The position numbers and the translations under genes were made by a program. Of a stretch of DNA of 26,614 bases, positions 1 through 661 are shown in pieces. Under the pieces are notes generated by a model. The model was not told where the DNA came from, searched no databases, and was given only the letters and a program-made list of their open reading frames with translations. The stretch covers positions 1 through 26,614 of IMG/VR virus record IMGVR_UViG_3300018080_000526. One strand, 5' to 3'. Position 1 is the first letter of the stretch. Each line of letters starts with the position of its first letter. Source of the stretch: a virus.

Positions 1-661
1 CAAAAGATGCTGAAAAGCGCACGCTACTTTCCCAGCATGTCCGGTGTCCAGTATTTCCCGAATCGCGCACTGGTTCATCGCGCGTGGTGTGTGTGAGCTG
101 ATTGTTAGCTTGACTGTTAGTATACACAAGGTTCGAAAACGAACTTTGCAAAGTTCGAAAACGAACCTTGGAAGGTTCGAAAACGAACAATGGAACTCCC
201 GCATCATTTTCCGTTTTCGAACTATGAAGAGTCCCAACAGTTTCAGCTATCGAATCATCATTTTTGTCCGAAGTTGTAGAGACAACTTCAACATTGGCGT
301 TTTTACTATTTTCATTTCTTAATTTCTCAAGCTCCATTGCATTGACCGAGTACCATATCGTCCGCTTTGAAGAACGCAGTTGCATGGTCACGATGATTTT
401 AGCATCTGAAAGAATTTTGACGGATTTCCGTACGCTGTACTTTTTTATGCATAGATCGTCGGATATGGACTGTATAGTGTCCTCCATCCAGTATCGCCCG
501 TCTTTCATATACCTTTCATCTTTATGGTCGATATGCCAGTTCATCGACCAGGTGATCCGGTTCAGTATGATCGCAGCCTCAACGCCAAATTTTTTGGCAA
601 CACGACGATCGAACACGACCACGTTTTGCCTATCGATTGCGGGTATCCTTTCACTTACCAT
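1..661 (-). CDS. Phage replication initiator-like winged-helix protein (C-terminus beyond window)
   Basis: This minus-strand frame is open from the ATG at 661 to the window edge, giving 220 codons and no stop. A strong Shine-Dalgarno (AGGGAGG) precedes the ATG. Residues 12-112 look like the winged-helix domain of phage replication initiation proteins: a VVVFDRRVAKKFG start, then GRYWMEDTIQSISDDL and KYSVRKSVKIL resembling a recognition-helix region, then a wing ending in TIWYSVNAMELEKL. Residues 115-200 are polar and low in hydrophobics, like a linker, and three DNA repeats lie within them. The gene diverges from the exonuclease gene, so 662-802 is a two-way control region. In another frame an ATG at 78 reads MNQCAIREILDTGHAGK to the edge and looks more protein-like than the end of this frame, so a second overlapping gene may begin there. 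Initiator role is inferred from family resemblance. Confidence 0.65.
   Translation of the reverse strand, partial: MVSERIPAIDRQNVVVFDRRVAKKFGVEAAIILNRITWSMNWHIDHKDERYMKDGRYWMEDTIQSISDDLCIKKYSVRKSVKILSDAKIIVTMQLRSSKRTIWYSVNAMELEKLRNENSKNANVEVVSTTSDKNDDSIAETVGTLHSSKTENDAGVPLFVFEPSKVRFRTLQSSFSNLVYTNSQANNQLTHTTRDEPVRDSGNTGHRTCWESSVRFSASF
131..222. repeat. Iterons inside the initiator gene (candidate origin)
   Basis: GTTCGAAAACGAAC occurs exactly three times, at 131-144, 153-166 and 175-188, with a constant 22-bp period. An 11-base part (CGTTTTCGAAC) recurs inverted at 212-222. Each copy is itself an inverted repeat, with GTTCG and CGAAC arms around AAAA. Because 22 is not a multiple of 3, each copy is read in a different frame of the enclosing gene, giving FVFEP, VRFRT and SSFSN. 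Selection therefore appears to act on the DNA rather than on the protein. About two helical turns of spacing inside an initiator gene matches the lambda O type of origin. Confidence 0.65.

What the first reader, a model, noticed from the sequence alone, without database searches (positions are those of the whole stretch)
131..222. Iterons out of protein frame inside the initiator gene: a candidate origin
Three perfect 14-mers at 22-bp period, plus a partial inverted copy, lie in a replication-initiator-like gene. Because the period is not a multiple of three, the repeated amino acids differ, so DNA-level selection is the simplest reading. This matches initiators that bind an origin within their own gene.
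Basis: partly seen in the sequence, partly recalled or inferred. Interest (0 to 1): 0.6.

Follow-up and report, generated by a model that had tools for sequence, protein, structure and literature searches.

The report
Phage replication origin inside initiator gene
A phage known only from environmental DNA carries, inside the gene for its replication-starting protein, three identical palindromic DNA sites that this protein most likely binds to begin copying the genome; the layout is known from phage lambda and some plasmids, and comparison with hundreds of relatives suggests a simple rule linking one amino acid to one DNA base.

Summary
GTTCGAAAACGAAC occurs exactly at 131, 153 and 175, with a 12/14 inverted copy at 209-222. 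The copies fall in three codon phases of a minus-strand gene (676 to the contig edge); 2,000 protein-preserving re-draws never reproduced them. The gene's N-domain matches phage replication initiator families, and its AlphaFold model is a winged helix closest to RepA_N plasmid initiator domains.

No close relative was found, but distant relatives settle the kind. In 90 of 157 loci the best repeat chain of the whole ~5 kb lies just behind this domain: 22-23 bp spacing, inverted repeats converging on an A-tract, half-sites differing widely. Across 121 non-redundant relatives, half-site base 3 covaries with one residue of the predicted recognition helix (z 13.9; next column 3.8). A code frozen on these was right in 25 of 41 held-out cases (shuffled 10.4 +/- 2.7).

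I conclude these are initiator-binding iterons of an in-gene origin, the lambda O / pSK41 Rep arrangement: a new member of a known kind. Binding and origin activity are inferred. Weak points: no AT-rich stretch beside the window's iterons, uninformative GC skew, and doubtful coding in the contig's last ~130 bases.

The parts
2..661 (-). Replication initiator gene, incomplete at its 3' end (contig edge). The open frame begins at TTG 676; likely start ATG 661 with ribosome-binding site GGAAGGGAGG. Coding beyond the iterons (2-130) is uncertain.
   Evidence: Open frame; PHROGs initiator families; codon-usage score coding-like up to the iterons, not behind them
341..628 (-). N-terminal winged-helix DNA-binding domain (residues 17-112)
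   Evidence: AlphaFold2 mean pLDDT 88; best structural matches are RepA_N Rep N-domains 4pql, 4pt7, 5kbj, 4pta, Z 9.8-10.6
404..442 (-). Predicted recognition helix (residues 79-91); Y80 is the residue aligned with the column that covaries with half-site base 3
   Evidence: Helix 79-91 in the model; covariation, held-out test
131..144 (.). Iteron, GTTCG-AAAA-CGAAC dyad
   Evidence: Exact match
153..166 (.). Iteron, GTTCG-AAAA-CGAAC dyad
   Evidence: Exact match
175..188 (.). Iteron, GTTCG-AAAA-CGAAC dyad
   Evidence: Exact match
209..222 (-). Degenerate inverted iteron copy (12 of 14), off the 22-bp grid
   Evidence: GTTCGAAAACGGAA with 2 mismatches
97..124 (-). Candidate opening element: TATAC followed by two 12-nt units CTAACAGTCAAG CTAACAATCAGC; weak counterpart of the WATACC + 12-nt repeats behind the iterons of relatives
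   Evidence: Sequence; family element and 12-nt period; in the window the 50 nt from TATAC are only 54% AT

Best explanation
The repeats are iterons of a phage replication origin lying inside its own initiator gene. The initiator's N-terminal winged helix binds each GTTCG-AAAA-CGAAC dyad, probably as a dimer, with its recognition helix reading the half-site and the A-tract helping the DNA bend. The 22-bp spacing (about two helical turns) stacks the initiators on one face of the DNA. Neighbouring DNA would then open, and the C-terminal half of the protein, lost at the contig edge, would recruit the helicase machinery. Because the sites lie in the linker-coding stretch, binding domain and cognate sites are inherited as one piece. 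Shown by computation: repeats, dyads, codon phases, initiator-type N-domain, family-wide layout, residue-base covariation. Inferred: binding, dimer, bending, opening, helicase recruitment, origin activity.
For: Exact repeats in three codon phases, unreachable by synonymous re-draws. Initiator-family N-domain with a RepA_N-like winged helix. In 90 of 157 relatives the best repeat chain of the ~5 kb locus lies just behind the N-domain, with 14 ties, where about 4% are expected; autocorrelation there peaks at 22, 23, 44 and 45 and not elsewhere in the gene. Layout of inverted repeats around an A-tract in relatives. Half-site base 3 covaries with one recognition-helix residue (z 13.9, next column 3.8); the frozen code is right in 25 of 41 held-out cases against 10.4 +/- 2.7 shuffled. 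Relatives sit next to helicase or helicase-loader genes. Same layout in lambda O (PMC7466680, PMC6022878) and pSK41 Rep (PMC5703833).
Against: No close relative of this initiator was found, so conservation is shown only at 16-28% identity. The window's stretch behind the iterons is not AT-rich (54%) and scores as non-coding in every minus frame. GC skew shows no usable switch. The code makes no prediction for the window's own tyrosine, and the alignment there is uncertain by about one position. About 40% of relatives do not have their best repeat chain in the linker by this crude measure. No experiment.
Confidence: 0.85

Rival explanations
1. The dyads are operators: the winged-helix protein, or another repressor, binds them to control transcription and not replication.
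For: Dyads at 22-bp period also occur as probable operators: a Mu-like phage (L006) has two GTTCGNNNNCGAAC sites 22 bp apart between two genes, next to a helix-turn-helix regulator gene.
Against: The sites lie deep inside the gene, about 440-530 bp from its start, and not at the divergent promoter region 662-802. In relatives they are always behind the N-domain of an initiator. PHROGs names the family replication initiation.
Confidence: 0.07
2. A hairpin or other nucleic-acid structure is what is selected (attenuator, cruciform, RNA element); the repeats follow from it.
For: The single strand 88-225 folds far better than shuffles (z -5.5).
Against: Any set of inverted dyads folds like this. 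Exact spacing of 22-23 bp and covariation of the half-site with a DNA-binding helix are not expected of a folding element.
Confidence: 0.04
3. A recent neutral tandem duplication in a loosely constrained linker, without function.
For: Three 14-mers are exactly identical, and initiator linkers tolerate change (pSK41: PMC5703833).
Against: The 8-bp spacers differ between copies while the 14-mers do not, and relatives hold the same layout with unrelated letters.
Confidence: 0.03

Closest known systems
Phage lambda O protein and ori-lambda (and lambdoid phages P27 and 933W)
   Same: Iterons inside the initiator gene, behind the N-terminal DNA-binding domain; each iteron is a hyphenated inverted repeat joined by adenines; spacing 20-24 bp (PMC7466680, PMC6022878).
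   Different: Different half-sites; no Pfam Phage_rep_O match; lambda O and the window protein share no significant PHROG, though relatives of the window's family and lambda O both reach phrog_678, 391 and 9773. Lambda has a clear AT-rich tract; the window does not.
pSK41 / pTZ2162 Rep (RepA_N plasmid initiators)
   Same: Winged-helix N-domain that binds repeats centrally inside the rep gene; the linker is encoded by the origin; an A-tract matters for binding (PMC5703833). Best structural matches of the window's N-domain.
   Different: No Pfam RepA_N match by sequence; 10-13% identity in the structural alignment; plasmid, not phage.
PHROGs phrog_428 / 11233 / 6493 phage initiators (for example Listeria phage FHC174-PLM34, Staphylococcus phage 42E)
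   Same: Homologous N-domain and 22-23 bp A-tract dyads in the same place.
   Different: About 20-28% identity; different half-sites; the window's linker before the iterons is longer (residue ~161 against ~105 in most); the window's three iterons have their A-tract on the opposite strand to most relatives.
PLE RepA and its origin (Vibrio cholerae phage satellite)
   Same: RepA_N domain and semi-palindromic iterons converging on poly-A; domain and origin covary as a module (PMC7145576, PMC8263062).
   Different: The PLE origin is intergenic, not inside repA, and its iterons are about 30 bp.

Membership tests
In-gene phage origin (lambda O type layout) | Tandem iterons inside the initiator reading frame, behind the DNA-binding domain | tested here: met
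In-gene phage origin (lambda O type layout) | Iterons are hyphenated inverted repeats with an A-tract centre at 20-24 bp spacing | tested here: met
   GTTCG-AAAA-CGAAC, period 22; lambda annotated 20, 24, 23
In-gene phage origin (lambda O type layout) | AT-rich region beside the iterons | tested here: inconclusive
   TATAC and two 12-nt units present, but 54% AT
In-gene phage origin (lambda O type layout) | Protein binds the iterons and replication starts there | not testable with these tools
   Only indirect: helix-base covariation across relatives
PHROGs phrog_428 / 11233 / 6493 initiators | Profile match of the N-domain | tested here: met
   E 5e-12, 3.3e-10, 3.4e-8
PHROGs phrog_428 / 11233 / 6493 initiators | C-terminal replisome-recruiting domain (such as Phg_2220_C) | not testable with these tools
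   Contig ends; present in relatives
Phage_rep_O (PF04492) | Pfam profile match | tested here: not met
   No match at E <= 1; lambda O matches at 5.7e-36
RepA_N (PF06970) | Pfam profile match | tested here: not met
   No match at E <= 1
RepA_N (PF06970) | Winged-helix N-domain fold of pSK41/pTZ2162 Rep | tested here: met
   Top four structural matches, Z 9.8-10.6, rmsd 4.7-5.5 over 112-123 residues; other winged helices follow at Z about 9

The most novel reading that the evidence does not exclude
A large, mostly unannotated set of phage initiators carries its origin inside its own gene and shares a simple recognition code: the third residue of the recognition helix sets half-site base 3 (D to C, S or A to A, K to G, R to T). 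Reader and sites therefore change specificity together within one gene, and the window holds a divergent member with a rare allele (Tyr with base A).
Probability: 0.6. Interest if true: 0.62.

Novelty: new member of a known kind. Interest (0 to 1): 0.45.

Why it matters
The window adds one uncultured phage to a known arrangement. The larger value is the family view: the origin of an unannotated phage can often be read from the sequence just behind its initiator's DNA-binding domain, and one residue appears to predict one base of the site. That would make origin specificity, and cross-talk between phages, satellites and plasmids, predictable and testable with purified proteins. I found no paper in the library searched that states this code, but that library lacks most subscription journals.

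Tried and rejected
Close relatives of the initiator: none in IMG/VR, GTDB genomes or plasmids, and no DNA match in phages. RecT gave none; the portal gave three loci, all too distant or too short to reach the initiator. A pattern scan for paired GTTCGNNNNCGAAC gave two unrelated phages. The full N-domain alignment was too diverse to scan with, so narrower alignments were used; these favour better-sampled branches. A dyad test with one fixed gap was weak, because the gap varies between 3 and 5. The first held-out run of the code failed because the alignment shifted at the key column; it was redone with a Staphylococcus phage as reference and the same frozen code. An earlier held-out set says little: 9 of 12 right, but base A in 19 of 24. 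GC skew rises from about 1 kb on and is uninformative on a fragment. PDB sequence search gave only weak PadR-type matches. Operator, hairpin and neutral-duplication readings were weighed and ranked low.

Full report
WHAT IS THERE. The window is a 26,614-base IMG/VR virus record, a fragment without end repeats. At its left edge a gene runs leftwards on the minus strand from about 676 (likely ATG 661) to beyond base 2. Inside it GTTCGAAAACGAAC occurs exactly at 131, 153 and 175, and once more, inverted and with two mismatches, at 209-222. Each copy is a dyad, GTTCG-AAAA-CGAAC. The 8-bp spacers differ while the 14-mers are identical, and the copies lie in three codon phases, so the same DNA is read as different amino acids. 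In 2,000 re-draws that keep the protein and use the window's own codons, none produced three identical 14-mers.

THE GENE. Residues 18-157 match PHROGs families described as replication initiation protein and DnaD-like helicase loader, E 5e-12 to 3e-8. There is no significant Pfam or NCBIfam hit. AlphaFold2, given 44 aligned sequences, predicts a winged helix with mean pLDDT 88. The four best structural matches are Rep N-domains of RepA_N plasmids, including a Rep-DNA complex, Z 9.8-10.6 at rmsd 4.7-5.5 over 112-123 residues; other winged helices follow at Z about 9, so the fold class is firmer than the particular family. Exonuclease and RecT genes follow on the other strand.

RELATIVES. No close relative was found in any collection. 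Most distant homologues examined (Listeria, Staphylococcus, Klebsiella, Pseudomonas, Bacteroides, Flavobacterium and Lactobacillus phages) carry their own 22-24 bp repeats right behind the N-domain, with different letters; two (a Vibrio and a Psychrobacter phage) show none by this measure. I then took 160 relatives from viral and bacterial contigs. For 157 with a usable frame I asked where the best three-copy chain of 18-28 bp repeats lies in the whole locus of about 5 kb. In 90 it lies in the 210-nt stretch behind the N-domain, with 14 ties; about 4% would be expected from its share of the length. Spacings are mostly 22 and 23. Autocorrelation in that stretch peaks at 22, 23, 44 and 45, and not in the rest of the gene. 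The repeats share a layout, half-site then A-tract then half-site, with a recurring spacer AATGGA or its complement, but half-sites range over TGACC, TGCAA, GGGCA, CGAAC and many others. Behind the repeats 98 of 167 genes carry a WATACC element followed by AT-rich 12-nt repeats; the element is about 45 times rarer elsewhere in the loci. In the window this part is weak.

A RECOGNITION CODE. If the N-domain reads these sites, its recognition helix should follow the half-sites. In 121 non-redundant relatives half-site base 2 is G in 111; this is partly built in, because the site finder rewards G there. Base 3 is not rewarded, and it covaries with one protein column above all: the residue aligned to the window's Y80, near the start of the predicted recognition helix (z 13.9, next column 3.8, mean 1.0 +/- 1.8). 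D goes with C (13/14), S with A (18/25), A with A (5/5), K with G (11/21), R with T (17/32). I froze this code and tested it on loci from two further scans, under 80% identical to the training set and to each other. It was right in 25 of 41 cases; permutation gives 10.4 +/- 2.7, and 0 of 20,000 reached 25. The same column was the best single predictor of base 3 among all columns (0.56, next 0.40, baseline 0.23). In disjoint pairs of near relatives the association holds for this column (p 0.013) and for none of eight neighbouring columns. Z values from shuffles do not correct for kinship; the held-out and paired tests reduce that worry but do not remove it. The window's tyrosine is rare at this column, so the code predicts nothing for it, and its alignment there is uncertain by about one position.

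HOW IT MOST LIKELY WORKS. The initiator N-domain binds its own gene at three or four dyads, stacked at two helical turns, bends the DNA at the A-tracts, and opens DNA nearby; a C-terminal half recruits the helicase machinery. The layout is established for lambda O, where iterons in the middle of gene O are 18-bp inverted repeats of hyphenated symmetry joined by adenines (PMC7466680; PMC6022878; annotated), and for pSK41 Rep, whose N-domain binds four Rep boxes inside rep, whose origin-encoded linker is dispensable, and where an A+T-rich tract in the box matters for binding (PMC5703833). RepA_N iterons are described as inverted repeats converging on a poly-A tract (PMC7145576). Exchange of N-domain plus origin as one block is known in pPR9 (PMC5703833) and, with an intergenic origin, in PLEs (PMC8263062). 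That keeping sites and reader in one gene makes such exchange a single event is my inference.

RIVALS. Operator sites, a folding element and a neutral duplication were weighed. All three fail to explain why relatives keep the spacing and layout with different letters, and why those letters follow a residue of a DNA-binding helix.

LIMITS. The 50 nt from TATAC are 54% AT, below relatives. The tail behind the iterons (2-130) scores below real coding frames in every minus frame, and 1-88 has 55% GC against about 42% next to it; the gene may shift frame, end, or meet an assembly fault there. The C-terminal domain, the next genes and genome-wide skew are out of reach. Nothing here shows binding or replication.

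VERDICT. Supported: iterons of an in-gene origin. It works like lambda O and pSK41 Rep; by sequence it belongs with the PHROGs 428/11233/6493 initiators, and not with Pfam RepA_N or Phage_rep_O. New member of a known kind; the recognition code across the family is the part worth following.

Noticed in passing
window 1-130 (minus strand): Behind the iterons the codon-usage score drops to non-coding levels in all minus frames, and 1-88 has 55% GC against about 42% next to it. The other open frame reads MNQCAIREILDTGHAGKVACAFQHLL, possibly a second gene start, a frameshift or an assembly fault at the contig end.
   Followed up: partly
relatives L025-L184, behind the iterons: A WATACCAGA-like element followed by in-frame, AT-rich 12-nt repeats (CCAGATAATAAA or ACAGAGACTACT units) in 98 of 167 initiator genes; a candidate opening element of these origins.
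   Followed up: partly
relatives, iteron arrays: Iterons whose letters hold a stop codon in one frame less often occupy all three reading frames (20 of 55 against 39 of 59 for stop-free ones, p 0.003); alternating 22/23 spacing may let an array dodge stops.
   Followed up: partly
L006 890-945: Mu-like phage with two GTTCGGGCGCGAAC dyads 22 bp apart between genes, beside a helix-turn-helix regulator gene: probable repressor operators of similar geometry.
   Followed up: no
window 803-2474: Exonuclease VIII-like (DUF3799) and RecT genes, a recombination pair transcribed away from the initiator gene.
   Followed up: no
window 6823-7788, 14149-15186, 25527-26363: NeuB-family, MptE-like and Polysacc_synt_2 genes: sugar or surface-glycan functions unusual in a phage of this size.
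   Followed up: no
window 23937-25136: Protein ending in a peptidase S74 (endosialidase chaperone) domain, probably a tail fibre.
   Followed up: no
window 2502-2583: 16-nt inverted repeat, 94% complementary with 50 nt between the arms, just behind the RecT gene; a possible structured RNA or terminator.
   Followed up: no
window 4561-5064: ERCC4-type nuclease gene between structural genes.
   Followed up: no
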